From Candidatus Anstonellales archaeon (GTDB taxonomy: Archaea; Micrarchaeota; Micrarchaeia; Anstonellales; CG1-02-47-40), in NCBI GenBank assembly GCA_038869735.1, contig JAWCQO010000009.1:1-32313 (forward strand): 32,313 nucleotides of DNA, in the 5' to 3' direction. Shown here piece by piece: positions 1-29,450 of this stretch; the first letter of the stretch is position 1; each line of letters starts with the position of its first letter. The notes beneath the pieces are model-generated. The model made no database searches. It had not been told where the DNA came from and worked only from the letters and a program-made list of their open reading frames with translations. The translations under genes were made by a program, and so were the position numbers.

Positions 1-271
1 CTCTTGGTCCCCAGTCCTGGCCGTATCCTGTCCAGTTACCTCCCTGAGTTGAGGCTGACAGTGGATAGCCGCTTCCATAATCTCCCCAGCCGTCATTGTC
101 TGTATCGTATATGGGCAGGCCAAGTATGTTCTGGTAGTAGTTTCCCTGTGCAGTTCCACTTGCTGTTGTGTTGAATAGGTTGGTTTCGTTTTTGTTGTCT
201 ATGTAGGTTGTGCAGTTGTAAAGCTCGTTATGATAAAAGAGATTATCCGAAGATGTGGAGGAGATGTTTAT
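1..271. repeat. Module-end repeat, copy 2 (within the beta-helix gene)
   Basis: This segment is repeated at 1774-2044, an offset of 1773 bp (591 codons, in frame). Positions 1-127 match 1774-1900 without a mismatch, and 212-271 match 1985-2044 without a mismatch. The stretch between has diverged. It encodes the DTDNDGWGD...WGPRG module end and the preceding last helix coil. The repeat may extend left of the window. Confidence 0.95.
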
Positions 272-3070
272 GCATGTGGTTGGCGAGCTTATGGTGTTGT
301 TTTCAAAAACAAAGCTTGATGTATTAGATAGATTAACGGCTAATTGTAAGCCTGATGATATATTAACATATCTAATGCTTCCGTTTGTCGAATTTTCAAG
401 GTATAACCCCACGTTGTTGCTTGAGTTAATGGTGCTGTTTTGTATTGCTCCACTTGTTAAGTTTGCTATCCATAAAGCTATGCCTTTATTTGAGGTTATT
501 AGTGAATTGGTAATATTAACGCTTGGGGAATAGAAAACACCTAACCCGTAGGTTGCATTTTCTCCAATTCCACGAATTGTAGAGCCTGTTATATTAAGGC
601 TAGTTTCAGAAGCTTTTAAGCCAAATGCTGGATATATGCCAGCCGACTCGCCAGTTACATTTGCCAGCGTGATATTCTGTGAGTTATAAATATATATACC
701 TGTTGAACTGGTAGAGTTTGCATATACATTTTGAAGTGTTACGTTTTGCGAATAAGAAAGGTAAACCCCTTCTGAAGAGTTGGCTATAAATTCAGAGTTT
801 AGAATGGTGATATTTCCAGCTTTCTCAATATATAAGCTCATGTTTCTCTTTGAATAAACACGAACATTTTCCACATTGTTGTTATAGCTATCTCTAACAA
901 TGAAAGCATAACCGCCATTGCTCTCAACAGTAAGATTTTTTAGAGTTGTTTGGTTTGCAAGATTAACATCGAAAGCGTTTGCGCTCCCCGAGCCTGCGGG
1001 AATATTAGTCTGATTTATTACAGTATTCTCTATAATTGTTCCGTCTACTTTATAGCCTCCAGAATAGCCAACGGTAAAAGCTCCATTATAACCTGTGACT
1101 TTTATATGAGAATTATTTACAACTGCATTAGGGTATCTTATGGCTACGCCAACTCCCGAAGATGAAAATGAAGTTAAGTTATTAAACCTATTATTAGGTC
1201 CATCTATAAATAAAGCAAGATAATACCATGTTTGAGTCTCTGTATTCTCTATTGTGCAGTTGCTTGCTGAAAGCCAAAGCCCTGCCCATCCTCTCCCTTG
1301 GAAAAACGAATTATTTATAGTGTGATTAAAGCCACGAATATAGCCAGCATGCAGGAACGGCTCGCCTCCGTTAGAAATAAGAACTGAAGAATTGACTTTA
1401 TTTATTTTTGTATTGTTAACAGTCCAGTCAATATAAAGGTTATGCCCGCCTGCTCGGTTCTTGGCATGCATAAGCTTAACATTATCTATAGAAACATTCC
1501 GGGTATAACCATAAATTCCAAGATGCGTCGTAAAGTTATAGATTGTGATATTAGCAACTACAACATTTGAAGCATTTATACTGATGCCGTGCGAGCCTGT
1601 AATGTTGTCTCCGACTATGGTATAGCCCGCCCCGTTTAAAGTCACGTTTTCTGCACTTATGTAAAAGCATGTGCCGCTGGTCCAGTTGGTGATGTTTCTT
1701 ATTAGTGTGTAAGTTGTGCCTGGGGAAGTTAGGTTTGAGCATGAACCAAGAAGTGATGGGTCTACTGTTGCTCCTCTTGGTCCCCAGTCCTGGCCGTATC
1801 CTGTCCAGTTACCTCCCTGAGTTGAGGCTGACAGTGGATAGCCGCTTCCATAATCTCCCCAGCCGTCATTGTCTGTATCGTATATGGGCAGGCCAAGTAT
1901 ATTTTGGTAATAATTCCCTTGTGCAATTCCGTTTGAGGTTGTGTTAAATAGGTTTGTGTCGTTTTGGTTGTCAATGTAGGTTAGGCAGTTGTAAAGCTCG
2001 TTATGATAAAAGAGATTATCCGAAGATGTGGAGGAGATGTTTATACATGCTTTGTTGGAGGGGGGATTTCCACCTATAGTGTTATTTGCAATGATAGAGT
2101 TATCAGCATTTGTTAATTTTAGACCTGATTTGGTTTGTGAGTGTGTGGAAATGTTGCTTCCCGTTATGTTGTTCCAGCTTGAGTCAGTTAGTTCAAGTCC
2201 AAAGTATGAGGTTGATGTAGATGTGGAGTTTATTATTTGGTTGTAGTTTGAGGAGGAGATATAAATACCAGAGACTGTGGTTGATGAGGTTGTTCCATTT
2301 GAGGTTATGATTGAGTTGCCAGAAGACGAGAACCTTATGCAAATGCCACAATAGCTTGATGATGTTCCGTTTGAGTTTATGATTGAGTTGTTTTGTCCGC
2401 TATCAATTCCAATACCAAAATAAGCTCTGCCTGCGGAATATTTTATGGTTGTAAAGTTTGAAGACCAAACATATATCCCACGGCCTGTATCTAAAGACGA
2501 GGTGTAACCCACTGAACCTGTGACGTTGTTGTAGGTGCTTGAATCGACATAAATAGCATAGGAAGATTGGGAGTAGGCTGTTGAGTTTATTATTTGGTTG
2601 TAGTTTGAGGAGGAGATATAAATACCATTGCTTGAGCTTGATGTTCCGTTTGAATTGATGATTGTAATAGAGTTTACATTTGAAAGGAAAATTCCCTTTC
2701 CACCTGCAACCGAAGTCATTGCAGTTATATTATCTATTGTTCCAAGTTGTGTATTAGCAAGATAAACTCCTTTTTCAAATCCATCTATTATCCCATTGGT
2801 TATAGTGGAGTTCTTTGCAGTTGTGTATATCCCAATAGAGTTGGCTTGTTTTGTTCCATTTATTAGGAAGCCATTCAGGTTGAAGGTGACATTTTCTGCT
2901 GTTATGTTAAAGCAGGAAAGAGCATTTGTTGAGATTGAGGAGATGAGGGTATAAGTTGTTCCTTGAGTATTGAGGTTTGCGCAAGCTGAAATATCTATTG
3001 AAAAGATTGTGCTGACCAGCAGAGAGAATAGAAAAAGAGCATAAGTAACTATTCTCCTGCTAATCTCCAT
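1..3070 (-). CDS. Giant modular parallel beta-helix (NosD-like) surface protein, C-terminus beyond the window
   Basis: An uninterrupted minus-strand frame runs from an ATG at 3070 off the left edge, giving at least 1023 residues. It begins with a signal peptide: basic MEISRR, then a hydrophobic stretch to about residue 25. The rest is low-complexity beta-helix sequence rich in Asn, Ser, Thr, Gly and Ile. Phrases such as GIYISSSNYNQIINS and NVTLQNVYANS recur, as in NosD/pectate-lyase-like right-handed helices. It is dense in N-x-S/T sequons, so heavy N-glycosylation is likely. Two modules are visible. Each opens with a C-x-N-L...GTTYTL...CF-I-AENVT-NG segment (about residues 31 and 445) and closes with a Ca-binding-like DTDNDGWGD followed by a WGPRG motif (about residues 432 and 1023). 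The function is probably an extracellular adhesin or S-layer-associated protein, but ligand and role are unknown. It lies downstream of the ABC ATPase and the beta-sandwich anchor protein on the same strand, separated by 216 bp. Confidence 0.9.
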   Translation of the reverse strand, partial: MEISRRIVTYALFLFSLLVSTIFSIDISACANLNTQGTTYTLISSISTNALSCFNITAENVTFNLNGFLINGTKQANSIGIYTTAKNSTITNGIIDGFEKGVYLANTQLGTIDNITAMTSVAGGKGIFLSNVNSITIINSNGTSSSSNGIYISSSNYNQIINSTAYSQSSYAIYVDSSTYNNVTGSVGYTSSLDTGRGIYVWSSNFTTIKYSAGRAYFGIGIDSGQNNSIINSNGTSSSYCGICIRFSSSGNSIITSNGTTSSTTVSGIYISSSNYNQIINSTSTSTSYFGLELTDSSWNNITGSNISTHSQTKSGLKLTNADNSIIANNTIGGNPPSNKACINISSTSSDNLFYHNELYNCLTYIDNQNDTNLFNTTSNGIAQGNYYQNILGLPIYDTDNDGWGDYGSGYPLSASTQGGNWTGYGQDWGPRGATVDPSLLGSCSNLTSPGTTYTLIRNITNWTSGTCFYISAENVTLNGAGYTIVGDNITGSHGISINASNVVVANITIYNFTTHLGIYGYTRNVSIDNVKLMHAKNRAGGHNLYIDWTVNNTKINKVNSSVLISNGGEPFLHAGYIRGFNHTINNSFFQGRGWAGLWLSASNCTIENTETQTWYYLALFIDGPNNRFNNLTSFSSSGVGVAIRYPNAVVNNSHIKVTGYNGAFTVGYSGGYKVDGTIIENTVINQTNIPAGSGSANAFDVNLANQTTLKNLTVESNGGYAFIVRDSYNNNVENVRVYSKRNMSLYIEKAGNITILNSEFIANSSEGVYLSYSQNVTLQNVYANSTSSTGIYIYNSQNITLANVTGESAGIYPAFGLKASETSLNITGSTIRGIGENATYGLGVFYSPSVNITNSLITSNKGIALWIANLTSGAIQNSTINSSNNVGLYLENSTNGSIRYVNISSGLQLAVNLSNTSSFVFENNTISSPTTCINISSTSSDNLFYHNELYNCTTYIDNKNETNLFNTTASGTAQGNYYQNILGLPIYDTDNDGWGDYGSGYPLSASTQGGNWTGYGQDWGPR
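1774..2044. repeat. Module-end repeat, copy 1 (within the beta-helix gene)
   Basis: Partner of the segment at 1-271. Identity holds at synonymous codon positions, so the likeness is at the DNA level and not only in the protein. Confidence 0.95.
2226..2270. repeat. 45-bp identical coil repeat, copy 1
   Basis: These 45 bases recur exactly at 2583-2627, an in-frame offset of 357 bp (119 codons). They encode the beta-helix phrase GIYISSSNYNQIINS, showing short-range coil duplication inside the first module. Confidence 0.9.
2583..2627. repeat. 45-bp identical coil repeat, copy 2
   Basis: Exact partner of 2226-2270 in the same reading frame of the beta-helix gene. Confidence 0.9.
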
Positions 3071-3096
3071 GGTGTGATTTTCTGTGGAGAAGCTTA
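3059..3096. repeat. Direct repeat covering the beta-helix gene start, copy 1
   Basis: This 38-bp segment holds the start codon, the first four codons and about 26 bp upstream of the beta-helix gene. A copy with three mismatches lies 92 bp further upstream at 3151-3188. Confidence 0.9.
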
Positions 3097-3150
3097 AAAA
3101 AGTTATTAAAGGATAGGGGGAGAGGATTTTTTGTGCTCTGAGTTTCTCTT

Positions 3151-3188
3151 GCTAATCTTCATGGTGTGATTTTCTGTTTAGAAGCTTA
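3151..3188. repeat. Direct repeat, copy 2: vestigial duplicated gene start
   Basis: Matches 3059-3096 at 35 of 38 positions, including an ATG (minus strand, at 3162). Translation from that ATG starts MKISKR, like MEISRR of the real gene, but stops after 18 codons. It looks like a leftover 5' end from a tandem duplication or rearrangement of the surface-protein gene. Confidence 0.75.
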
Positions 3189-3236
3189 GAAGAGGTATAT
3201 CTGAGAATTTCGGAGGATGCCGCACTGTCAGGAGGC

Positions 3237-3286: not shown

Positions 3287-4813
3287 TCAGATTTCAAAAA
3301 AAGTTAAGGTCTTTCCTTTTCCTCGAAATTTAAAGTAAAGGACAAGTGCAAGGAGTGCAGCTATAGCTGCTGCTCCTATACATAGGATACTCGAGTCCCC
3401 GCTTTGGCCAGAAACTTTGCTGGCGGTTTCAGACGAGACGACTTCCAGCATCACCGTGGAATTAATCGTGTACTCGTTGTTGTATGCGTCTTTAAACGAG
3501 GATTCTACGATAAGCGGGTAACTTCCTGGTGGGACGTTGCCGACCAAAACTTTATACTGAACAGATGAGAAATCATCCTGCTCCAAGCCGCCTATAAATT
3601 GAGAGGCTTGCGCATCGAGAATCTTGAAAACAGGGCTTTCAATAAGCCTTAGTCTGAGGGCTTTTATGCGGGAGGAGCCTGTGTTTGAAACAAGGACTGA
3701 AAAGGTATGGGCCTGGCCGGCTGTAATGGGTATTGGTTTTGAAGAAACAAAAACAGAAAGTTCATTTGGGGCAGCAACGTTTACCCCAACTGAGACGTTG
3801 TAAGGTGCTTGAAGATTTCCATTTCCGTCTTTATAATAGATCTCTGCAGTTAGTGGATAAAAACCGGGTTCTATATTTTTTACTCCTACGTCAAAGAAGA
3901 CGTTTGCCTCTGAGTTTGGTGCGAGGTCGCCGACGATTATTTCAGAGGTAGAAAGTGGGGTTAGGATATTGGGCGATTGGAGTTTTACTGATACAGAATA
4001 GGCAGCCATGTCACCGCTGTTTTTAAGGCGTAAGGAGAGAACTGATGCTTTGCCGGGAACTAGGGGGGAAGCGGGTACCACGCTAAATATGAATTTTGGC
4101 AATCGATTTCTTACTTCAGCATTTAGAAAGAGAGTTTCAGAATAATCAGTTCCAAGTGCATCACGATAGGTAATTACAAGTGGAACAGAATATCTCCCGC
4201 TTGGAATGCCAGAAGCCATTGTAAGATTGAGGGAGAAGACAACATTATCCTCAACGGTGCCTAGAAAAACGGGGGTGGGACCTGCGATATAAAAGCTTGT
4301 TGAGTTTGAGTAGAGTTTTGCATCATATGCCGTTCCACCGGAATTTCTTATTGTTACCTCACTTGTAAAGCCACTGTCAGCATAGGCTATTGCTGGTTGA
4401 GACTCAAGCTGAAATGAAGCGGGGTTTTTTACGCTTATTGGAACAATCAAGGTCTTTTTCCCTGACAAAAAGCCGCTTTGCCCTGTTGAGAAGTATGTAA
4501 GGTAGATGGGCAAATTATAGATTCCGGGGGGGGTATTTTTACTAACAGTAAAGGGGATTGAAAAGGAAGTAGTTATACCTGAAGAGAAATCTCCAAGATT
4601 GTATCTTCCGGAAGAGATGATGAATTGAGAACCGGCCGGCTCGGCAGTTACTGATGTGGCGTTTGAGCCAGAGTTTAGGATAGTTATGGATATTGAACCT
4701 GTGATTCCCGGTCTTACGGTTGTGGGAAGGACAGAATAGCTCGAGATTGATATATCTGCAAAATGCGTTGCAATGGCGCATAGGAGTAAAAAAACAAATA
4801 CGCTTTTGTTCAT
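3287..4813 (-). CDS. COG1361-like membrane-anchored protein with four beta-sandwich repeats
   Basis: 508 residues. The N-terminus is a signal peptide (MNKSVFVFLLLCAIATHFA). Four immunoglobulin-like repeats of roughly 105-120 residues follow, at about 20-135, 135-240, 240-350 and 350-460. Each carries the pattern 'G....(F/V)...(I/V).NSG' and a 'PPGIYNLP' or 'EPGFYPL' type turn, typical of archaeal COG1361/NEW3/CARDB S-layer-associated domains. One transmembrane helix at about 476-494 is followed by a short basic tail, so the repeats face outward. The gene begins 9 bp after the ABC ATPase gene, so the two are probably cotranscribed. In many archaea this family sits with a LolD-like ATPase and an FtsX-type permease. 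No permease is seen here. The family assignment is by pattern recognition only. Confidence 0.8.
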   Translation of the reverse strand: MNKSVFVFLLLCAIATHFADISISSYSVLPTTVRPGITGSISITILNSGSNATSVTAEPAGSQFIISSGRYNLGDFSSGITTSFSIPFTVSKNTPPGIYNLPIYLTYFSTGQSGFLSGKKTLIVPISVKNPASFQLESQPAIAYADSGFTSEVTIRNSGGTAYDAKLYSNSTSFYIAGPTPVFLGTVEDNVVFSLNLTMASGIPSGRYSVPLVITYRDALGTDYSETLFLNAEVRNRLPKFIFSVVPASPLVPGKASVLSLRLKNSGDMAAYSVSVKLQSPNILTPLSTSEIIVGDLAPNSEANVFFDVGVKNIEPGFYPLTAEIYYKDGNGNLQAPYNVSVGVNVAAPNELSVFVSSKPIPITAGQAHTFSVLVSNTGSSRIKALRLRLIESPVFKILDAQASQFIGGLEQDDFSSVQYKVLVGNVPPGSYPLIVESSFKDAYNNEYTINSTVMLEVVSSETASKVSGQSGDSSILCIGAAAIAALLALVLYFKFRGKGKTLTFFEI

Positions 4814-4822
4814 GTTATCCCT

Positions 4823-5551
4823 TCAGGCCTCCTGCCTAATGTGCGCCTGACTTTCCTTTTTTATTTTTACTCTTTTTTCTATTGAGCCGTCGCGGATATA
4901 AAGTATTTCGTTGCTATGCGATGCAACGCTTGTGTCATGAGTAACGATTATTATAGTCTTTCCTTTTTTATTGAGCCCATCGAATATTTTTAATACTTCT
5001 CTGCCAGCTGAGGAGTCTAAATTGCCGGTTGGCTCATCAGCAAGAATTATAGAGGGGTCGTTTATAAGTGCCCTAGCTATTGCAACTCTCTGTCGTTCAC
5101 CTCCAGATAGCTCTGATGGTAGATGAAAAAGCCTGTTGCTAAGAGAGAAGCTGGAGAGGATTCTCTCTGCGCGTCTCATACGCTCTTTCTTTGGAACACC
5201 AACAAGCATGGCTGGAAGTTCAACGTTTTGGATTGCGTTTAGGCTTGGAATAAGATAAAATGACTGGAATACAAAACCTATTTTTTTAGCGCGTATGCTT
5301 GAAAGGTTCTCATCTGAAAGAGTTGTCGTTTCGACACCGTCAATGTAAACCTTGCCATTGGTTGGAGTATCAAGGAGTCCAAGTATATGCATAAGAGTTG
5401 ATTTTCCGCTTCCTGAGGGACCTACAATTGCAATATAATCTCCCTGATTGACTTGCATTGAAATCCCCCTGACAGCGTGAAGATTAGTGCTTCCAGCCTC
5501 ATAAGTTTTCCACACATTCTCCAGTCTAATCACTTCATTTGTTATAGCCAT
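4823..5551 (-). CDS. LolD/MacB-type ABC transporter ATP-binding protein
   Basis: 242 residues, a full single nucleotide-binding domain. Walker A GPSGSGKST is at 44-52, the Q-loop FVFQSF near 94, the signature LSGGERQRVAIARAL near 148, Walker B with D-loop ILADEPTGNLDS near 169, and the switch histidine VTHD near 204. The phrase NVELPAMLVGVPKKER after the Q-loop is typical of the LolD/MacB/FtsE branch, which drives mechanotransmission to surface proteins and not bulk transport. The start ATG at 5551 lies 25-30 nt from an AT-rich element at 5574-5586, which fits a leaderless mRNA. The neighbour downstream is a surface beta-sandwich protein, and a PadR-like regulator is divergent. No cognate membrane permease is in the window. 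Confidence 0.93.
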   Translation of the reverse strand: MAITNEVIRLENVWKTYEAGSTNLHAVRGISMQVNQGDYIAIVGPSGSGKSTLMHILGLLDTPTNGKVYIDGVETTTLSDENLSSIRAKKIGFVFQSFYLIPSLNAIQNVELPAMLVGVPKKERMRRAERILSSFSLSNRLFHLPSELSGGERQRVAIARALINDPSIILADEPTGNLDSSAGREVLKIFDGLNKKGKTIIIVTHDTSVASHSNEILYIRDGSIEKRVKIKKESQAHIRQEA

Positions 5552-11448: not shown

Positions 11449-12504
11449 TCAGACAACTGCAAACCCAAGGCCTTGAAGAAAGGCCTTAGTCGTAAAGAAT
11501 ACTATTAAAGACAAAGCGCTTAAAAAAGGTATATATCTAACTCCGTGCCACTTAGAGCCCTTCTGTATTATGCCTATGATTATGGAGGACGTGATTGAAG
11601 TAAATAGGATGACGCCTATTGAGAATACAACAAACTCATCGGGAGAGAATGGTGGTTTTGAGAGTGAGAAAAACGCAAAACCGCGCTCTACTTGAGCTGA
11701 GGGCAACTTGCTAAATGCAGCGTAAAGGGTAGAAAGCAAAGAATGAGATACGGCCATCAGAAAAGGGGAGCCTATTACACTTGCGAACAAAACAAATATT
11801 ACATACATCAGGAGGGAGGAGGATATTTCTTTTGAGGTTATTTGTATATTCCTTCCGTCTTGGGCTATCTCATCTAAAACGTCAGCTGTTTTTCCTCCTG
11901 TCAGCATGCTTTGTTTTATTAAGGATACTGTACGCATAAGAAGTGGGGAATCGAAGCTTGATGCCAGCTTGTCAAGTGAAGTAGTAAATGGTTCTCCAGC
12001 AAAGGCTCTTTTTGCGGCAGCCTCCACCTCACGAGAAAGAAGACCAAACTCCGGCTTTGCTGCCTGCCAAAGCGCCTGGTCAACGGGCATGCCTGCACGT
12101 ATATTTGCACTTGCAATCATTAGAAAATCAGGAAGGGTTGATTCGACCAGTTTTCTTCTCGACTCTGAGCTAAAGGAGAGATACGTGTAAGAAAGAAGAA
12201 AGAGGGTTGAGGCTGAAAGCACAATGGATATCAAATAGAGCAAGATCGAAGCTGAGAAGATTACTTTAAATGGAAAAGGGAGCTTGCCGGAAATAGCAGA
12301 TGCAAGCAAGTAGAATTTCTGGGATGTATAAAGAAATCCAAATATTGCAATCGAAAGCAATATCGTAAATGAAAGGAGAAGACCAACAAGCACTTCTGCT
12401 CTTATACTAACACCTGCCATGCGAAGGGCGGCTTCAATCTTACGGATATGCTGCCGCGAAAGAGAGCGTCCTAGCTTATCAAAAAAATCTATAATGCTCA
12501 TCAT
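11449..12504 (-). CDS. tadC: Type IV pilus membrane platform protein, TadC-like (T2SF family)
   Basis: 351 residues with about five hydrophobic helices: near 39-60, a long pair near 80-125, and three in the C-terminal half (MYVIFVLFASVIGSPF and later). The cytosolic stretch between them, LVESTLPDFLMIASANIRAGMPVDQALWQAA, is the T2SF/GspF hallmark ('lp..l..la..l.aG.....al'). It overlaps the TadB-like gene by 4 bp (ATGA), so the two are translationally coupled and probably form a heteromeric platform, equivalent to a single FlaJ split in two. The platform couples the TadA motor to pilin insertion. Confidence 0.85.
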   Translation of the reverse strand: MMSIIDFFDKLGRSLSRQHIRKIEAALRMAGVSIRAEVLVGLLLSFTILLSIAIFGFLYTSQKFYLLASAISGKLPFPFKVIFSASILLYLISIVLSASTLFLLSYTYLSFSSESRRKLVESTLPDFLMIASANIRAGMPVDQALWQAAKPEFGLLSREVEAAAKRAFAGEPFTTSLDKLASSFDSPLLMRTVSLIKQSMLTGGKTADVLDEIAQDGRNIQITSKEISSSLLMYVIFVLFASVIGSPFLMAVSHSLLSTLYAAFSKLPSAQVERGFAFFSLSKPPFSPDEFVVFSIGVILFTSITSSIIIGIIQKGSKWHGVRYIPFLSALSLIVFFTTKAFLQGLGFAVV

Positions 12505-13400
12505 CCAACACCAACCCTTGGTCTTGATGCTTCGATTGCAGATACAAAGAGAAATTGAAAAAGGGATATGATTACAAAAATAACAAGAAGGAGTAGACTT
12601 CCGTTTGCGTTTGCCCAGAAACCAATAAAGGAGAGCAAAATGGAACCAAGTGCAACTCCAAGAGAGGGGAAAACGATACCAAAAACCATGAAAAACATAA
12701 CTAAGGGGTAGAGTTTTTGACCATAGGCTTTTAGTGAAACTAATTGTTCGCGCGAGATTTGTTCAAGTACCGAGTCAAGAGAGTTTGCAACATCAGAACC
12801 TGAAGAAAGAGCGTTTGAAAGCTGGAGAACAACACGCCTAAACATTTGAGATGGGTTTGTTGCTGCAACTTCGTGCATGGCGGCATTCACCGGCATACCA
12901 AGAGCAGTTTTTTCTATTATTCTGTTAAATTCCTTGCTTGCTTCGCCGTAGCCTGATGAGGCGGCAGATATGGCATCGTATAGAGGAACGCCCGCCCTCA
13001 GTGAAATTAGGATATGCCTTCCGGCAAAGACAAGCTCTGATTCAATAAGACGCGCGCGTACATTGGCCTTCACTCGTGGGAAGTTCATAAAATAGAAAAA
13101 TGAGAAAAGAAGGAAAAGTGGGAATAGGAACAGAAAGAAAACAGGGTTAATACGTGGCAGAAAAAGATAGGCTATTAGAAGGAGCGAAAGCGAAAGAAAG
13201 AGTGAAGAGCGCAATGCATGGTAAGCAAATGAAAGTGTGGTGTAGTTGGTTAGATTAGCCATTACAAGCTCTGACTGGAGATTCGGAAAATACTTAAGGG
13301 TGTATGAAAGAAGATTGGACAAGGAAGCAGGGATAGAAATAGATTTAGTACTATTTTCATCAGTTGGGTCTTCTTCTTTTAGCTTTCTTTTTCGGTCCAT
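12501..13400 (-). CDS. tadB: Type IV pilus membrane platform protein, TadB-like (T2SF family)
   Basis: 299 residues. A charged cytosolic N-terminus of about 65 residues comes first, then two membrane helices (about 66-110). The T2SF domain follows, with LVFAGRHILISLRAGVPLYDA and ALGMPVNAAMHEVAATNPS, then two or three helices at the C-terminus (YPLVMFFMVFGIVFPSLG and SLLLLVIFVIISLFQFL). The two T2SF proteins are paralogous in layout. It starts 3 bp after the TadA stop and overlaps TadC by 4 bp. Confidence 0.85.
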   Translation of the reverse strand: MDRKRKLKEEDPTDENSTKSISIPASLSNLLSYTLKYFPNLQSELVMANLTNYTTLSFAYHALRSSLFLSLSLLLIAYLFLPRINPVFFLFLFPLFLLFSFFYFMNFPRVKANVRARLIESELVFAGRHILISLRAGVPLYDAISAASSGYGEASKEFNRIIEKTALGMPVNAAMHEVAATNPSQMFRRVVLQLSNALSSGSDVANSLDSVLEQISREQLVSLKAYGQKLYPLVMFFMVFGIVFPSLGVALGSILLSFIGFWANANGSLLLLVIFVIISLFQFLFVSAIEASRPRVGVG

Positions 13401-13403
13401 AGT

Positions 13404-14933
13404 TTAGATGCCCTCCCACTTAGCATTATGCTCAGCTAACGAAAGGATTTCGTCAGGTGATTGATAGTAGTTTGAGATTATGCGAGCAACTGTCTCAAGC
13501 CCGGTGTATTTGTTGCGTACCATCCATGAAAGTATTTTTGATTTTTCTTCTACGTCTTGGTCTATCTCCTTTTGAGTCAGGCCGGAGTAAAGGGAGAGTT
13601 TTTCTGAAAGCTTGTTCATCTTACCAATGGGAAGCATTCGCTGGCTTTTTATGTCAAGTCGATAGAGTACATTAGCGCCGTCACTTGAAACCTCTGCAAA
13701 CTCGAATGTTTTTCGCAGATTTAAGCGGCGGTTTCTATACTGTACAACTATTCCTGAAAGCGAATCAAGCATAACCCGTGGTACGTTTATAGGAGGATTT
13801 GTAAGGCGAGTTACTGTTTCTTGTGAGTTGTCCGCATGAATCGTAGCATAAACCGAATGTCCGGTGTGCATGGCTTCAAACATTACTTGGGCTTCTCTTT
13901 CTGTGCGAACTTCTCCTAGCAGTATTCTATCAGGTCTTTGTCGAAGAGAGTTAATAAGAAGGTCAAGCATAGTGATTTCGCCCTTTCCCTCAATATTTGA
14001 TTCTTTAGTTACCATTGGAATCCAATGCATAAATGATGGCAGAGTAAGCTCGCGCGTGTCTTCAATAGAGATTATGCGCTGATTAGCAGGAATAAGAGTT
14101 GCAATAGCATTTAAAAATGAAGTTTTTCCGCTTCCTGTTCCTCCAGTGACTAACAAAGACATCTCGTTTTGGACACAAAGCCATATTAGAGAGGCTATGT
14201 GCGTTGGGATACATTCTAGTTCAACAAAACGGCTAATGGTCCACGGGTTTTGGGAGAACTTTCTGATGGTAATAGTATTTCCAAAAGAGGAAACCGGATA
14301 GAGCGTCGCATTAACTCTTTCTCCGGTTGGAAGATGGGCGTCCATAAGCGGGCATAGTGTGTTTATCTGTTTTCCTATTTTCCTCCCTATCAATGCGGCA
14401 TAATCGTATATATTTTCCTCAGATCTTATATACACATTCGACTTGCACCATCCCCATTTTTTGTGATATACCCAGACTGGCTCATTTGAATTATTTATTG
14501 CAATTTCTTCAAGCTTATCATCGTGCATTAGAGCTTCCAGCTCTCCAAGACCAAGTGTATTTTGGATTAGATATGAAGCAAGGACTTGTTTTGTAGAGTC
14601 AGAAAGGGATGGGAAGTTGCGTGTGAGTAAGGCAAGTGCCTTTGAATTGAACTTTTCTTTTATTTCGTCTGCTTTTTTAGAGTCAAGCATCTCTGAGACC
14701 GAAATTTTTACGCTTGAGACGAGTTCAGCCTTTAGTGTGTTTAGAACTATTTTTGTACCTTCTCCTAGTCCGGGTATGTGGAGGTTGTAGCGCGGAGTAA
14801 AGTCTGATGCAGCGCGAGTTATTTGTACATTGACAGGAATAGACTCTGAATTGAAATAGTAATTGTCAAGAATTGTGGCTTTATCTTGTTTGGCTTTATC
14901 TTGTTCGTCTTCTTTTTTGATTTTGTCTGGCAT
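13404..14933 (-). CDS. tadA: Type II/IV secretion ATPase, TadA/CpaF-like pilus motor
   Basis: 509 residues. The N-terminal domain (about 1-230) includes an AINNSNEPVWVYHKKWGW segment and the PTGERVNATL stretch of the family. Walker A GGTGSGKT is at 264-271. The Asp box SIEDTRELTLP is near 290, Walker B RILLGEVR at 336-343, and the His box HTGHSVYATIHAD near 356-368. All motor motifs are intact, so it is an active hexameric ATPase that powers pilus assembly. It is the first gene of the operon TadA-TadB-TadC-pilin-lysozyme-like. A GGGA lies 4-8 nt before the ATG. The C-terminal segment from about 440 is outside the catalytic core. Confidence 0.93.
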   Translation of the reverse strand: MPDKIKKEDEQDKAKQDKATILDNYYFNSESIPVNVQITRAASDFTPRYNLHIPGLGEGTKIVLNTLKAELVSSVKISVSEMLDSKKADEIKEKFNSKALALLTRNFPSLSDSTKQVLASYLIQNTLGLGELEALMHDDKLEEIAINNSNEPVWVYHKKWGWCKSNVYIRSEENIYDYAALIGRKIGKQINTLCPLMDAHLPTGERVNATLYPVSSFGNTITIRKFSQNPWTISRFVELECIPTHIASLIWLCVQNEMSLLVTGGTGSGKTSFLNAIATLIPANQRIISIEDTRELTLPSFMHWIPMVTKESNIEGKGEITMLDLLINSLRQRPDRILLGEVRTEREAQVMFEAMHTGHSVYATIHADNSQETVTRLTNPPINVPRVMLDSLSGIVVQYRNRRLNLRKTFEFAEVSSDGANVLYRLDIKSQRMLPIGKMNKLSEKLSLYSGLTQKEIDQDVEEKSKILSWMVRNKYTGLETVARIISNYYQSPDEILSLAEHNAKWEGI

Positions 14934-15015: not shown

Positions 15016-16800
15016 TTAGGTATGCTTCCCCCGATAGAACTCGCTTATCATCTCGCGGAGTTTGGCTCGCCTCTTTTCATATCTTTCATATTCACTTTGG
15101 GACATCTCAAATTCAGCAGTGTGAAACTGACGAGGTATTGTGGGCTGAGCAGGGTAGCTGATGCTTTCAGCTTTTTGGATAAGTTGATGGACTTTCGTTT
15201 GCAACTCTTCTTGCTGAGCTCTAAGAGAACCAAGGGAGTCCAGCAACCTTTTTACCTCGTCCTTTTTTCCTTCAAACTCTTTCATCTTTGAAATTACTGC
15301 GTCTGCCTTTTTTATTTGAGCCTCAAACTCCTCCCTGTTTGAGTTAATTTGTCCTTCTAGTTGGGAAAGTGCAACAGAAAAATCATTGTATGATTTTAGA
15401 TAGTGGCTCTTGAGCTTTTCCAGGCGCTCCACTTGCTTTTGGATAGACGACTGAATTGCTTTCTTCTGCTCTTCAAGCTCAGCTTGGCTGATGGTGGGTT
15501 TTAGGCGTTCTATTTCCTCTGAGATTTTTTTGGCTGACTCAAGATTCTTTTGCAAAGTTTCTCTTAGGGCTGTTATTTTTGAAAGAGCTTCATCAATTTT
15601 GGATTTTCTACTGGCACTGTCTGATTGTGATTTGTAGTAATTCTGTATCGCAGTCAACTGAGCATCCGCCTTCTTCTTTTCTTCTTCTATATCTCGAAGA
15701 TGTTGTTCTATCTCAGTTTTTATTTTTTCGTATGAAGTAGAAGAAAAAAGGAGCTCTCGTAAAAGGGATTCTGAAGAAATGAGTGAGGAAAGCTCTTCTC
15801 GCTGGAGGCGAATTGCAGATAGGACATCTTTTGCTAAATCACCAAATACGCTGGCTTTCTGCTCAATGTTGTTTAGCTCATCTTTTATCTTCATTGCTTG
15901 CTTGTCTACTTCCGCAAAACTCTTTTGTAGGCTTGTTCGAAGCGATTTATCTTTTTGTATTTCTGCATGGAGAGCAGATATACGCTCTAGAATTAGAACC
16001 AGCTCTTTTTTAATAGCTTCAAGCTCGTAGGAAGCTTTTTTGATTCGTTTTATTTGCTCGTCTATCTGAGACTGGTGAGCGGCCTTTCCGAGAAGGTTTT
16101 TTTGTTTGTCTAATTCTAACGAAATGTTGGCCCCAAGGCGCTCAATTTCTGATTTGAGAGAATTAGATCTTGCCATGAGGGCTTGATAATCTTCAACTTT
16201 ACCTTTTATGCGTTCAATATCATGCTGTATCTGGATGCACTGGGTATGCAAGAAATCCGCTCTTTTATTAGTTTCGTTTATCGAAGTAGACAGGTTAGAG
16301 AGGTTCCGTTTTATGTCTTCGAGTTGGTTTGTGTGGTGAAGGTATAACGCCTCTTTTTTTTCTTGTAATTCCTTAAGAGTTTCAAGTCTTTTTTGCGTAT
16401 CTAGGAGTTTTGGGTCAAGGCTCTTATAAAGTTCAAGATAATTTAACTCTAGCCGTCTTATTTGTTCGCCTTTTAATTGCACAAGAGCAAGAAGCTTTGA
16501 TAGTTTGGGCTGAAGTTCGCTGTGTTGAAATCCAGCACCTCTTGACTCGACACTGAAACCAAAGCTTTTTGGATCGGTGATTATCTCTCCACCAGCTGTC
16601 CAAACAAGATAGGTTTTTGTAAGTAGATACTCAATTTTTATTATTCCTTCCTCCTCTAATATGCGAGCCCACTCCTCAAGACGCTCTTTTGGAATTGCAA
16701 GTGCACTGGCAGCTTCTTCAAGCAAAACTTTTTTTTTGTTATAGAGAAGCTTTATTAAGGCGTCAACGCCTGTGCGAATCTCATTTTCATCTACGGCCAT
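15016..16800 (-). CDS. Winged-helix plus long coiled-coil protein, unknown function
   Basis: 594 residues from ATG 16800. The frame continues upstream to 16932, but that would overlap the divergent gene and its promoter, and the added residues look random. Residues 1-75 form a winged-helix-like domain (VDALIKLLYNKKKVLLEEAA ... ILEEEGIIKIEYLLTKTYLVW). From about 95 to 560 the chain is almost continuous heptad-rich coiled coil of Lys, Glu, Leu and Gln, of SMC-arm or filament type but with no ATPase head. There are no membrane segments. It is upstream of, and codirectional with, the pilus operon (82 bp gap), so a scaffolding or positioning role for the pilus is possible. Its divergent neighbour carries related winged-helix-like repeats. 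Confidence 0.7.
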   Translation of the reverse strand: MAVDENEIRTGVDALIKLLYNKKKVLLEEAASALAIPKERLEEWARILEEEGIIKIEYLLTKTYLVWTAGGEIITDPKSFGFSVESRGAGFQHSELQPKLSKLLALVQLKGEQIRRLELNYLELYKSLDPKLLDTQKRLETLKELQEKKEALYLHHTNQLEDIKRNLSNLSTSINETNKRADFLHTQCIQIQHDIERIKGKVEDYQALMARSNSLKSEIERLGANISLELDKQKNLLGKAAHQSQIDEQIKRIKKASYELEAIKKELVLILERISALHAEIQKDKSLRTSLQKSFAEVDKQAMKIKDELNNIEQKASVFGDLAKDVLSAIRLQREELSSLISSESLLRELLFSSTSYEKIKTEIEQHLRDIEEEKKKADAQLTAIQNYYKSQSDSASRKSKIDEALSKITALRETLQKNLESAKKISEEIERLKPTISQAELEEQKKAIQSSIQKQVERLEKLKSHYLKSYNDFSVALSQLEGQINSNREEFEAQIKKADAVISKMKEFEGKKDEVKRLLDSLGSLRAQQEELQTKVHQLIQKAESISYPAQPTIPRQFHTAEFEMSQSEYERYEKRRAKLREMISEFYRGKHT

Positions 16801-16818
16801 GAATGAAGATACCCTCCG

Positions 16819-16834
16819 TAAATATATAAATATC
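16819..16834. promoter_or_regulatory. Shared bidirectional TATA element
   Basis: taaatatataaatatc is a near-palindromic TATA box. Its centre is about 26 nt from the ATG of the coiled-coil gene (16800, minus) and about 29 nt from the ATG of the four-repeat gene (16855, plus). This fits leaderless transcripts in both directions from one element. Confidence 0.65.
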
Positions 16835-16854
16835 ATTCTTGAAACTGATATTGT

Positions 16855-18081
16855 ATGGATAGCAAAACCCCACCTAAAAAAAGGCAGTTTCATCCGATTG
16901 AAAACCTTAAAAATCAAAACAAGATATTGCATCGTTTTGGAGAAGTAGGATTGAGGGTTTTCGCAGCGATTGACGGAGTAAAAAGCAGGGATAGAATAAT
17001 TGATGAGGCTCGTTGCACTGAAAAGGAATACGAAGAAATAATCTCATTTATGGAGGCATATGATATGCTGGATAAAGGGGGGAGTAATGGGGAGGAGCAC
17101 GAAAGCAAAGAAGATAGTAAAAGTATTGACGAAGAGGGAGCTGAGAGGGTAAATATTAAACCGGAAATTACGGTTTCTCAAACTATTACACCGTCAGCAT
17201 CTAGGAAGGAGATGACTAAGGAAGAGGAACGACTTGCTCAACTTTCTCCGCTTGAAAAAAAAATTTACAAAAAATACGGAGAGATAGGAGTAAACATTTA
17301 TCATCTCATAGATGGCGAAAAAACTGCTGAACAGATCCTTCATGAAGTTGGAATTTCGGAAGTAAAGCTTGTTGAGATACTTGAGTTTTTAGAGAATGAA
17401 GGGATAATCAAAATTGAAAAGCAATCCCCTCCACTCGTGGCCGACCAAAAAATTGTCGACCAAAAGATTGAAAAGGATGTGGCAGAGGGTGTTTTCTATG
17501 AAGGATGGGAAGAAAAGAGAGGTAGAAAAGAATTGTTTGCCCCTATAGTTGAGGAGAAGGATTATTTTGATGAGGGTTCAGCCGTGCCAAAAGATGAGAC
17601 TGCGGCTAGTGTAATACCTATAGATATACCGTTAAAAAAGAAGATTGGATTAGTTAAAGAGACTAGAATAAAGGCAGGAATTATATTGAAGTTTGGATCT
17701 GCAGGTTCGCGAGTATACGAGTTAATCAACGGTGTGAATGATGCTATAGATATCGCACTTGAGACTAAACTATCCCTTGAAACCTTGGATAAGATTTTTG
17801 AGTGGTTAGGGCAAGAAAAGGCTGTGTTGTTCAAAAGAATGAAACGAGAGGAAATCAGAAAAAAATATGGTGAAGAGGGGCTTATGATATACAAGAAATA
17901 CGGAAGAGAGGGCATTTTGTTGTATGAGCTGATAGGGAGGGAAAAGAAACTGAAAGATGTTATTATTACAAGCAAACTTCCCCCTGCAAGGGCGGTGGAT
18001 ATCCTGCTTTTTATTCACTCTGCATTGAATCTGGATTTACCGATAGATAAGAAAACGTTATACAATGAGCTTGGGCTCTAA
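16855..18081 (+). CDS. Protein with four winged-helix-like repeats, unknown function
   Basis: 408 residues with four related segments of about 50 residues, at 24-72, 137-189, 276-327 and 345-395. The shared pattern is 'I..(K/R)(F/Y)G..G...Y.LI(D/N)G....D.I.......L..I..FLe..g.i'. A half copy (IRKKYGEEGLM, about 334-344) directly precedes the fourth. Acidic, low-complexity linkers (75-130 and 195-265) join them. There is no signal peptide or membrane helix. The repeats look like small helical or winged-helix modules, and the 'LENEGIIKIEK' end of repeat 2 matches 'LEEEGIIKIEY' in the divergent coiled-coil protein. A regulatory or protein-binding role near the pilus operon is inference. I know no named family for it. 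Confidence 0.7.
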   Translation: MDSKTPPKKRQFHPIENLKNQNKILHRFGEVGLRVFAAIDGVKSRDRIIDEARCTEKEYEEIISFMEAYDMLDKGGSNGEEHESKEDSKSIDEEGAERVNIKPEITVSQTITPSASRKEMTKEEERLAQLSPLEKKIYKKYGEIGVNIYHLIDGEKTAEQILHEVGISEVKLVEILEFLENEGIIKIEKQSPPLVADQKIVDQKIEKDVAEGVFYEGWEEKRGRKELFAPIVEEKDYFDEGSAVPKDETAASVIPIDIPLKKKIGLVKETRIKAGIILKFGSAGSRVYELINGVNDAIDIALETKLSLETLDKIFEWLGQEKAVLFKRMKREEIRKKYGEEGLMIYKKYGREGILLYELIGREKKLKDVIITSKLPPARAVDILLFIHSALNLDLPIDKKTLYNELGL

Positions 18082-26875: not shown

Positions 26876-28128
26876 GTTCTCACCCTTTCCAAATCTTCAA
26901 AAAAGCTAGGATAGGATTTTGAAACGCACTCCGCACCGTAGATTATTGTTTTTTCTTTTGCACAAAGAGCTGCTACTGCACAGGCCATTGCTATTCTATG
27001 GTCTTTTTGTGAGTCTACAACCCCCCCTCTTAGTTTCTGGCCAAAAATTTCCATTTTATCTCCATTGACTCTGAGTTTTCCACCAAGCTTCTTAAACTCA
27101 GTAACAAGTGATTTTGCCCTATTGCTCTCCTTGTGTATCAATCTCCGAGAGCCATATATGGTGCTTTTTCCCTTGCAGTTGCATGCAAGAGCCACAAGTG
27201 GAGGAAAAAGGTCTGGACAATCGGTGGCATCAAACTCAAAAGAGCAAAGTGATGAAGACAAAACAGAAACTGATCCCTCTTTGCACCTTACTTTGGCGCC
27301 TGTAAGCGTGAGGGCATCAACTATTTTTTTGTCTGGCTGTAAAGAAGATTCACTCAAACCACGTACAGTTATATTACCGGCAATTGCACCTGCCACTAGG
27401 AGAAAGGAGGCACTTGACCAATCACCTTCAACATAGAAGGTAGCTGGCTTGTACTCCTGATTTGCAGGAATGTTAAAGATTCCTTTTTCAACATCAGCCT
27501 CTATTTTTACTCCAAATTTTGATAAAACTGAAAGGCTTATGGCTACATAGGGCTTGCTGGCAAGCCTCCTTGCAACTAAGGTGGAGTCGTTTTTGCATAG
27601 TGGAAGCGCAAATAAGAAGCCAGATATAAGCTGTGAGCTTATTAAACCATCAACTTCTATTCTGCCTCCTATCAGAGGCCCTCTAACAATAATGGGAGGC
27701 CTTCCCAGATTGGTTTTACAGTAGGCACCTGCAGCCTGCATGGGAGCTTCTATTTCGCCTAGATAGCGAGAAAGAAGAGAACCCGTTGCGTTTAGTACAA
27801 CTGTTTGGCTGCAAAGGGCGGATATTGGAGTAAAAAGCCTTATGCATAAACCCGACTCTTTACAGTTAAGTTCTATTTTCTTTTTTCCTCTTCCAATGTT
27901 TTCTCCAGCACCTTTTACGATTAGTGAATCTTTTCTACGAGTTATTTTCGCTCCAAGATTTCTCGCTACACCTTCAGCTGCAGAGGCATCTTCGCAGCAG
28001 CTGATGTTCTTGATTTTTGTTTCCCCCAAAGCTAGGAGAGAGGCAGCTATTGCTCGCTGGCTCACGCTTTTTGAAGGTGGAGCAAAAATGCTTCCTCTAA
28101 CATCTCCGGGTAGGATTATTTTCTTCAC
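26872..28128 (-). CDS. aroA: 3-phosphoshikimate 1-carboxyvinyltransferase (EPSP synthase)
   Basis: 418 residues from a GTG that overlaps the aroE-aroK stop (GTGA). It has the two-domain inside-out barrel of EPSPS. The PEP/S3P contacts visible are PPSKSVSQRAIAAS, SSQLISGFLFALP, DWSSASFLLVAGA, the catalytic Asp region DCPDLFPPL, IHKESNRAKSLV, KDHRIAMA and SKSYPSFFEDL. The loop that reads GNAGT in many enzymes reads KESGLCIR, closer to the 'ESGST' form common in Firmicutes, with Cys where Thr usually sits. The reaction is shikimate-3-phosphate plus PEP to EPSP. It is tightly coupled on both sides by 4-bp overlaps. Confidence 0.94.
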   Translation of the reverse strand: MKKIILPGDVRGSIFAPPSKSVSQRAIAASLLALGETKIKNISCCEDASAAEGVARNLGAKITRRKDSLIVKGAGENIGRGKKKIELNCKESGLCIRLFTPISALCSQTVVLNATGSLLSRYLGEIEAPMQAAGAYCKTNLGRPPIIVRGPLIGGRIEVDGLISSQLISGFLFALPLCKNDSTLVARRLASKPYVAISLSVLSKFGVKIEADVEKGIFNIPANQEYKPATFYVEGDWSSASFLLVAGAIAGNITVRGLSESSLQPDKKIVDALTLTGAKVRCKEGSVSVLSSSLCSFEFDATDCPDLFPPLVALACNCKGKSTIYGSRRLIHKESNRAKSLVTEFKKLGGKLRVNGDKMEIFGQKLRGGVVDSQKDHRIAMACAVAALCAKEKTIIYGAECVSKSYPSFFEDLERVRT

Positions 28129-29450
28129 TTATCTGCACCCCTAATCAATTCCTCGCCTATCAGTTCAGCTATTTGGTAAGGGAGCTTGTGATTGGTGTTT
28201 ACAGCAATATGGCATGCAGAAGCATACAGGGGGAGGCGATAGCTCAAAAGTCTTTTTATGGTTTCTTTTCTATTTTTGCCTATGAGGAGGGGGCGGTTCT
28301 TGTTGCCTCTTGTTCTCTTTAAAATCTCTCCTTGCCCTGCATAAAGCCAGATTACAAAGCAATTATCTTTCAAAAGAGCCACATTTTCTTTTCTTAGTAC
28401 TATCCCTCCCCCACATGAGATTACTGTTTTATCATCGCTTAGAGCTTTTTTAAGTGCTGCTGATTCCATGTCCCTAAACCTATGCTCTCCAAAGGTATTG
28501 AATATGTTGGATATGCTCATGCCTACCTCCTTTTCAATAAGAACATCTGTTTCTGTGAATTTGAAGCCAAGCCTTTTTGACAAGGTCTTCCCCACGGTAC
28601 TCTTTCCGCTTCCCATAAAACCAATGAGGGCTATTTTTCTTCGAGTCCTTAATTCAGGATAGCTTGAAAACGCGCATTCTCTCATGAGGTTGATTGGTGC
28701 TTTTCTTCCAGTAAATATCTCAAAGGCTGATGCTCCTTGAAATAGGAGCCACTCAAGAGGGGATATTATGGTGCAACCAACCTTTCTTGCATCAGAGAGT
28801 AGGGCACTTTTGCCGGAGTAGTTTGCGTCAAGAACTGCCATCGAGGGTTTAAGAAGCTTTCTGGGAACGATGCGCTCATGGGTTGAAACGCATGAAATTA
28901 TTATGTGTGACCCAACAACTGCAGCTTTGAGTTCTCCTTTGCTTATGCCTATAGCCCTGCAGCCAAACATTTTACATATTTCTTTTGCTTTCTCAGTTGT
29001 TCTATTGGCGCAGATAACGTTTGATCCAGCTTGAGTTAGCGCCATAATGGCTGCTTTTGCAGAGCCACCGGCTCCGAGTACTACTACGGACTTTCCCTTT
29101 AGGGGTATACCGGCCGACTGAAAGGCTCTGAGAACTCCATCAGTATCTGTGTTAAAGCCGATTGATTGACCGTTTTTGAATACCACTGTGTTGCATGCAC
29201 CGAGTCTCTCTACCTCCACGCTTGCCTTGTTTAATTTTTCTGCAATGTCTTCTTTGAGGGGGGATGTTACATTCATGCCGCGAAGCCCGATTTCCCTTGC
29301 AATATTAAGAACGTCCTGAGCGCTTTTTGCCAAAAGTCTAAAATAGATTGCATTTAGTCCACATTTTTTCATTGCAGATGTTTGCATTTGTGGACTCCGG
29401 CTATGGGATATCGGGCAGCCGACAACTGCAAACAAAAGCGGTTTTTTCAT
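28125..29450 (-). CDS. aroE-aroK: Fused shikimate dehydrogenase-shikimate kinase
   Basis: 441 residues encode two consecutive pathway enzymes in one chain. Residues 1-265 are AroE: VVGCPISHSRSPQMQ, NVTSPLKED with the catalytic Lys at 66, FNTDTDG, the NADP loop LGAGGSAKAA near 125-134, and the C-terminal QGASAFEIFTG. Residues 272-441 are a P-loop shikimate kinase of the bacterial AroK type: LIGFMGSGKSTVGKTL with Walker A at 277-284, ETDVLIEKEVGMSI, FGEHRFRDMESAAL with the shikimate-binding Arg, ISCGGGIVL, and the lid RNKNRPLL-type segment. All catalytic residues appear intact, though the usual DTD is ETD. Most archaea use an unrelated GHMP-family shikimate kinase. There is no stop or frameshift at the junction, and only a short linker (SYPELRTRRK). 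Confidence 0.95.
   Translation of the reverse strand: MKKPLLFAVVGCPISHSRSPQMQTSAMKKCGLNAIYFRLLAKSAQDVLNIAREIGLRGMNVTSPLKEDIAEKLNKASVEVERLGACNTVVFKNGQSIGFNTDTDGVLRAFQSAGIPLKGKSVVVLGAGGSAKAAIMALTQAGSNVICANRTTEKAKEICKMFGCRAIGISKGELKAAVVGSHIIISCVSTHERIVPRKLLKPSMAVLDANYSGKSALLSDARKVGCTIISPLEWLLFQGASAFEIFTGRKAPINLMRECAFSSYPELRTRRKIALIGFMGSGKSTVGKTLSKRLGFKFTETDVLIEKEVGMSISNIFNTFGEHRFRDMESAALKKALSDDKTVISCGGGIVLRKENVALLKDNCFVIWLYAGQGEILKRTRGNKNRPLLIGKNRKETIKRLLSYRLPLYASACHIAVNTNHKLPYQIAELIGEELIRGADK

What the first reader, a model, noticed from the sequence alone, without database searches (positions are those of the whole stretch)
1..3070. Giant modular beta-helix surface protein with recent DNA-level homogenisation between modules
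Two module ends 1773 bp apart (591 codons) share 127 and 60 consecutive identical bases, including synonymous sites, while the flanks have diverged. This indicates recent gene conversion or unequal exchange, as in phase- or antigen-varying surface proteins. Further modules may lie left of the window, so the full protein could be very large.
Basis: partly seen in the sequence, partly recalled or inferred. Interest (0 to 1): 0.7.

Follow-up and report, generated by a model that had tools for sequence, protein, structure and literature searches.

The report
Patchwork-copied giant archaeal surface gene
The window ends inside a giant surface-protein gene of a tiny (Micrarchaeota) archaeon whose parts have been copied almost letter for letter between its own modules and from a second giant gene elsewhere in the genome; such proteins are thought to touch host cells, and I found no earlier description of this patchwork copying.

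Summary
In detail: bases 1-276 and 1774-2049 match at 93%, including identical runs of 127 and 60 bp. The gene lies on the minus strand: its N-terminus is at 3070, and the contig ends at base 1 in mid-gene. It is the N-terminal part of a giant Micrarchaeota protein ("gene A"): signal peptide plus two right-handed beta-helix (NosD-type) modules. The remainder is very probably on contig C1 (Ig-like, PEGA and Cys-rich parts, about seven membrane helices); conserved gene order in a related genome supports this on both sides. Homogenisation is real: the identical tracts hold 0/62 synonymous changes, the stretch between them 10/22, and comparisons between genomes are near saturation. I also found a 295-bp start cassette (leader, signal peptide, first 58 codons) 96% identical to that of a second giant gene (B). 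It carries a fragment of nadE, B's upstream neighbour, so it was copied from locus B to locus A. A related genus has independently similar A and B N-termini. Gene B carries a cytoplasmic HerA-type ATPase, like nanohaloarchaeal SPEARE proteins. Nothing shows phase or antigenic variation. The 127-bp run ends at the contig end, so its length is a lower bound.

The parts
2..3070 (-). Gene A, N-terminal 1,023 codons of a giant secreted protein; open at the contig end (C-terminal side)
2996..3070 (-). Signal peptide (about residues 1-25, hydrophobic core 7-25)
   Evidence: hydropathy only
2897..3191 (-). Start cassette: leader (3071-3191) plus first 58 codons; 284/295 identical to G000:C14 8305-8599, the start of gene B
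3103..3162 (-). Remnant of locus B inside the leader: decapitated start ATG-AAG-ATT-AGC-AAG followed by the 3' end of nadE (NSEHKKSSPPIL, stop)
   Evidence: NadE C-terminus conserved in G001
1928..2995 (-). Beta-helix module 1 (residues 26-381)
   Evidence: Pfam Beta_helix/NosD; AlphaFold; PDB fold matches
1774..2049 (-). Module end 1 (tail ...GNYYQNILGLPIYDTDNDGWGDYGSGYPL...GPR), internal copy of the 276-bp repeat
158..1762 (-). Beta-helix module 2 (residues 437-971)
   Evidence: Pfam; AlphaFold
1..276 (-). Module end 2, contig-terminal copy of the repeat
1..127 (-). Identical tract of 127 bp (pairs with 1774-1900; 91 bp of it is also at the end of G000:C1, 89/91 identical)
212..271 (-). Identical tract of 60 bp (pairs with 1985-2044)
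3287..4813 (-). CARDB/NEW3 surface protein with C-terminal membrane helix, upstream neighbour of gene A, conserved in G001 (60%)
4823..5551 (-). ABC transporter ATPase, conserved neighbour (62%)

Best explanation
The finding is the N-terminal part of a giant, membrane-anchored, beta-helix surface protein of a Micrarchaeota archaeon (gene A). Shown: segments of this gene have been homogenised at DNA level by non-reciprocal copying, i.e. intragenomic gene conversion or an equivalent recombinational copy, (i) between the ends of its own modules and (ii) from the start of a second giant gene (B), on another contig with different neighbours, into the start of gene A: a 295-bp cassette that carries along a piece of nadE, B's upstream neighbour. 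Inferred: the copying follows from homologous recombination among many related modules, keeps export signals and module ends alike, and lets module bodies diverge and be reshuffled. The proteins most likely reach out from the cell to bind partner or host cells; B, with a cytoplasmic HerA/VirB4-like ATPase, resembles the SPEARE proteins of nanohaloarchaea, and A is a paralogue with about seven membrane helices in place of the ATPase.
For: Identical tracts with 0/62 synonymous changes next to 10/22. 24-codon blocks with under 30% of the expected synonymous differences: 12/117 within genes, 15/145 between contigs or genes of one genome, 0/57 between genomes. Start cassette 284/295 with sharp ends on both sides, full-length only at loci A and B in this genome. 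nadE 3' end found at locus A, while nadE itself sits directly before gene B, and its SxHKRxxPP-type C-terminus is conserved in G001. N-terminal DNA identity A-B 80% and 85% within G000 and G001, 51-57% across. Conserved neighbours: CARDB-ABC-PadR-AAA_18 before A, ScpA-ScpB-HisS after A, helicase-P-type ATPase-NadE before B, M42 peptidase after B. Intact gene B in G001: 4,547 aa, beta-helix, LamG, NEW3, membrane helix, HerA. C1 starts with the same module end and runs to about seven membrane helices.
Against: C9 and C1 are not physically joined in the assembly; the 91-bp overlap has two mismatches, so an extra module or a strain difference may lie between. The direction of copying is fixed only for the start cassette. 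A one-off duplication followed by divergence could produce some of the pattern. Function (adhesion, host contact) rests on architecture and analogy only. Only one other genome of the family was available.
Confidence: 0.7

Rival explanations
1. Plain recent duplication: the start cassette and a module end were duplicated once, and the rest diverged under selection, with no ongoing conversion.
For: Tandem duplication clearly happens here: a 91-bp unit (nadE end plus leader plus first codons of B) is repeated before gene B. The start cassette in G000 could be one event.
Against: One duplication cannot give near-saturated synonymous sites in the middle of the 276-bp repeat and none on either side; A and B N-termini are alike within each of two genera but not across them, which needs at least two events; G039 giant genes show similar zero-difference blocks.
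Confidence: 0.22
2. Assembly artefact: the terminal 127 bp of the contig is a collapsed repeat edge, so the second identical copy may not exist as written.
For: The run ends exactly at the contig end, and that end is the base at which the internal copy (next base G) and the C1 copy (next base C) part. C14/C6 also break inside a repeat, with 77 and 78 identical bases at the ends.
Against: The 60-bp tract and the 28 diverged codons of the terminal copy lie inside the contig next to unique sequence; the C1 copy is an independent near-identical copy with its own two synonymous differences and unique downstream sequence; the start cassette (2897-3191 and C14 8305-8599) is flanked by unique sequence in both contigs.
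Confidence: 0.08
3. Programmed antigenic or phase variation: modules are silent donors recombined into an expressed locus to change the surface.
For: Directional copying between two surface-gene loci and patchwork tracts.
Against: The copied parts are the constant ones (leader, signal peptide, module ends), not the variable bodies; both genes have open frames with signal peptides; no promoterless cassette array found; no strain data.
Confidence: 0.06
4. Constraint on the DNA or RNA itself keeps the tracts identical.
For: Tracts are short and sit at fixed module ends.
Against: The homologous module end in G001 differs at 15 of 32 aa-identical codons (18.7 expected if unconstrained), and cross-genome blocks are close to saturation.
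Confidence: 0.02

Closest known systems
SPEARE and other giant membrane-anchored proteins of nanohaloarchaea (PMC6642349; PMC10266531)
   Same: Small DPANN archaeon; signal peptide, multi-thousand-residue adhesive ectodomain, LamG domain (seen in the G001 orthologues), C-terminal membrane anchor; gene B also has the cytoplasmic HerA/VirB4-like ATPase that PMC10266531 describes. PMC6642349 already reports similar intracellular parts in Micrarchaeota.
   Different: Ectodomain with NosD beta-helices rather than mostly Ig-like domains; the finding itself (gene A) lacks the ATPase and ends in about seven membrane helices; a homogenised start cassette is not mentioned in the passages read.
NosD/Beta_helix (PF05048, PF13229) archaeal surface proteins
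   Same: Right-handed beta-helix modules, each closed by a GNYY...DxDxDG.GD...YP tail.
   Different: DNA-level identity of the tails and their giant, multi-domain context.
Intragenomic gene conversion between archaeal paralogues, e.g. mtrA copies in methanogens (PMC4632066, start of abstract read)
   Same: Copying that makes paralogues within a genome more alike than orthologues.
   Different: Here partial tracts in giant modular genes, including the leader and signal-peptide segment, with direction marked by a fragment of a neighbouring gene.

Membership tests
NosD/Beta_helix surface protein | Match to PF13229/PF05048 above the curated cut-off | tested here: met
   111.5 bits (cut-off 25.9) and 104.6 bits (23.6)
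NosD/Beta_helix surface protein | Right-handed parallel beta-helix fold | tested here: met
   All-beta models with short repeating strands, pLDDT 82 and 78; top PDB matches AlgE4, AlgG, PfbA; TM-scores modest (about 0.3-0.5); handedness not measured directly
SPEARE-like giant protein (gene A) | Signal peptide, multi-thousand-residue ectodomain, C-terminal membrane anchor | tested here: met
   depends on the C9-C1 join
SPEARE-like giant protein (gene A) | Laminin-G domain in the ectodomain | tested here: inconclusive
   None in the G000 pieces; present in the G001 orthologue piece C2; an unassembled middle may hold it
SPEARE-like giant protein (gene A) | Cytoplasmic HerA/VirB4-type ATPase at the C-terminus | tested here: not met
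   P0002 and the G001 equivalent show no ATPase: gene A is not filed as SPEARE
SPEARE-like giant protein (gene B, not in window) | Cytoplasmic HerA/VirB4-type ATPase at the C-terminus | tested here: met
   DUF87/HerA_C, TrwB_AAD_bind; PDB HerA matches
SPEARE-like giant protein (gene B, not in window) | Direct sequence homology to nanohaloarchaeal SPEARE | not tested
   No named SPEARE sequence was fetched
Phase- or antigen-varying surface protein | Different expressed versions between cells or strains | not testable with these tools
   One genome per species, no reads
Phase- or antigen-varying surface protein | Silent donor cassettes | tested here: not met
   DNA searches of the whole genome find only pieces of the A and B loci; the genome may be incomplete

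The most novel reading that the evidence does not exclude
Two giant host-contact genes of Micrarchaeota at separate loci form a recurrently converting pair: leader, signal peptide and N-terminal cap are repeatedly copied from the ATPase-bearing gene to its partner, and module ends are copied among modules, so that export and joints stay constant while the ectodomains are free to reshuffle and follow changing hosts.
Probability: 0.2. Interest if true: 0.72.

Novelty: new variant of a known kind. Interest (0 to 1): 0.5.

Why it matters
Giant surface proteins are leading candidates for how DPANN archaea seize their hosts, yet how they evolve is little known, partly because their repeats break assemblies. 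A copied start cassette with its direction recorded by a fragment of a neighbouring gene shows that recombination moves pieces between such genes, and gives a concrete, testable route by which host-contact proteins of genome-reduced archaea could be remodelled. It also warns that these genes are fragmented in MAGs and their size underestimated.

Tried and rejected
A first hypothesis that 127 bp is the k-mer of the assembler was weakened: other repeat-broken ends share 77-103 bp, so I only claim a repeat-induced break. A first BLAST-based codon test lost all within-gene pairs (probably because BLAST drops HSPs nested in the self-match) and was replaced by a diagonal scan. phmmer against PDB found no relative of the window protein. 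The annotated phage/plasmid/E. coli collections do not hold the relative's record. No paper in the library names the relative genome together with its phylum. I considered and rejected DNA-level constraint and a true end of the gene at the window edge (no stop; frame open to base 2).

Full report
WHAT IS THERE. The window is a complete contig (G000:C9, 32,313 b) of an 884-kb, 15-contig, 97%-complete genome. Its closest relative held, G001 of the same family, has contigs of 32,863 and 231,582 b, the lengths of MNVE01000012.1 and MNVE01000009.1 of 'Candidatus Micrarchaeota archaeon CG1_02_47_40'; the host is therefore inferred to be a Micrarchaeota archaeon. The finding's ORF is on the minus strand: ATG at 3070, signal peptide, then 1,023 codons open to base 2, so the contig ends in mid-gene on the C-terminal side. 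It matches Beta_helix (3.9e-32) and NosD (6.6e-30). AlphaFold gives all-beta models for module 1 (pLDDT 82) and module 2 (pLDDT 78), and the best PDB matches of module 1 are right-handed beta-helix proteins (AlgE4, AlgG, the adhesin PfbA).

THE REPEAT. 1-276 and 1774-2049 are 93% identical, with identical runs of 127 and 60 bp. In codons: 20 identical, then 28 mixed (12 identical, 10 synonymous, 6 non-synonymous), then 42 identical. Synonymous change is 0/62 in the tracts and 10/22 between them, so neighbouring parts of one duplicate pair have very different ages. That is the signature of conversion or recombination tracts inside an old duplication. A cross-genome control (window module end against the G001 module end) shows 15 synonymous differences where 18.7 are expected, so there is no sign of constraint on the DNA itself. 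Over 13 giant ORFs or pieces from five genomes, 24-codon blocks with less than 0.3 of the expected synonymous differences number 12/117 within genes, 15/145 between genes or contigs of one genome, and 0/57 between genomes. The effect is not confined to the window's genome: G039 and G001 show it too.

THE CONTIG END. The terminal copy ends exactly at the base where the internal copy (next base G) and a third copy, at the end of contig C1 (next base C), part company. C1's copy is 89/91 identical and opens a 1,914-codon frame that runs through Ig-like, PEGA and Cys-rich regions to about seven hydrophobic helices (the Ig-like and Cys-rich labels are by eye). Gene order supports the relation. In G001 the same CARDB, ABC, PadR and AAA_18 genes lie at the start of gene A, and the same ScpA, ScpB and HisS genes lie after its end, with a 2,080-codon piece (G001:C2) that holds both beta-helix modules and the beginning of the C1-like part. 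Gene A is thus at least about 2,900 aa (1,023 + 1,914 - 30), and both assemblies broke at its repeats. More modules may be missing between C9 and C1.

Window 2897-3191, i.e. 121 bp of leader plus 58 codons, is 284/295 identical to C14 8305-8599, the start of a second giant gene, B, with abrupt loss of similarity at both ends. At locus B the upstream neighbour is nadE, and a 91-bp unit made of the nadE 3' end, the leader and the first codons of B is tandemly repeated there. The copy before gene A contains the nadE end (NSEHKKSSPPIL, stop), although the gene before A is the CARDB gene and not nadE. The NadE C-terminus is authentic (G001 NadE ends SRHKRIAPPVV). The cassette was therefore copied from locus B to locus A. 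In G001, A and B N-termini are again alike (85% DNA identity over codons 21-80) but unlike those of G000 (51-57%), while A-B within G000 is 80% over the same stretch, which runs beyond the end of the cassette. Since A and B are orthologous across the two genera by neighbours and C-termini, the homogenisation happened at least twice, or once before and once after the genera split.

GENE B. C14 (start) and C6 (3,271 codons to the stop) are its two pieces; the intact G001 orthologue has 4,547 aa with beta-helices, LamG, NEW3, one C-terminal membrane helix and a cytoplasmic HerA/DUF87 ATPase. That ATPase is sporadic: 6 of 295 Micrarchaeota genomes sampled at E <= 1e-25, in ORFs of 3,271 to 12,373 codons except one of 425. 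This is the architecture reported for SPEARE and related giants of nanohaloarchaea (PMC6642349, PMC10266531), and PMC6642349 mentions similar intracellular parts in Micrarchaeota. Gene A lacks the ATPase, so I do not file it as SPEARE.

HOW IT MOST LIKELY WORKS. Shown: signal peptide, beta-helix, giant size (given the join), homogenised tracts, direction for one of them. Inferred: anchored at the C-terminus, exposed on the surface, rich in N-glycosylation sequons (6 per 100 residues), binding partner or host cells. The tracts are by-products of homologous recombination among many related modules, and possibly maintained because leader, export signal and module ends must stay functional. Archaeal precedent for conversion between paralogues exists (PMC4632066).

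VERDICT. Observation confirmed; interpretation partly supported; known kind of protein, with an unusually clear case of directional, recurrent patchwork copying.

Noticed in passing
L110/L111 (G137:C12, about 99310-136428): An uninterrupted ORF of 12,373 codons without Ns in another Micrarchaeota genome: Ig-like, PEGA, MG2 and NEW3 domains, membrane helix and the same HerA-type ATPase at its end. It exceeds the 9,409-aa protein that PMC10266531 calls the largest of cultivated archaea.
   Followed up: partly
L012 1-9816 (G000:C6), L082 2369-16012 (G001:C15): Gene B: giant beta-helix protein fused through one membrane helix to a cytoplasmic HerA/VirB4-like ATPase.
   Followed up: yes
L014 8230-8440 (G000:C14): Tandem 91-bp duplication spanning the nadE 3' end and the start of gene B, leaving a decapitated second start (MKISKRNSEHKKSSLPIL, stop).
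   Followed up: yes
L014 1-684 (G000:C14) and G000:C5 start: Contig ends share a 99-bp exact piece of a gene with tandem repeats (MGGEKLLKEWQEMMQQKKENQQEPQTTDGRLPFGTLPPLQR); another repeat-rich gene that breaks the assembly.
   Followed up: no
G001 upstream of genes A and B (L084, L082): In the related genome both giant genes are preceded by what look like DUF4143-type ATPase genes, absent at both places in the window's genome (family assigned by eye).
   Followed up: no
window 11449-14933: Type IV pilus/archaellum-like operon: T2SSE ATPase and two T2SSF membrane proteins, beside a 638-aa coiled-coil-like protein (15016-16932).
   Followed up: no
window 28125-29450: Fused shikimate dehydrogenase-shikimate kinase (AroE-AroK), in a gene run that also holds an aminotransferase.
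   Followed up: no
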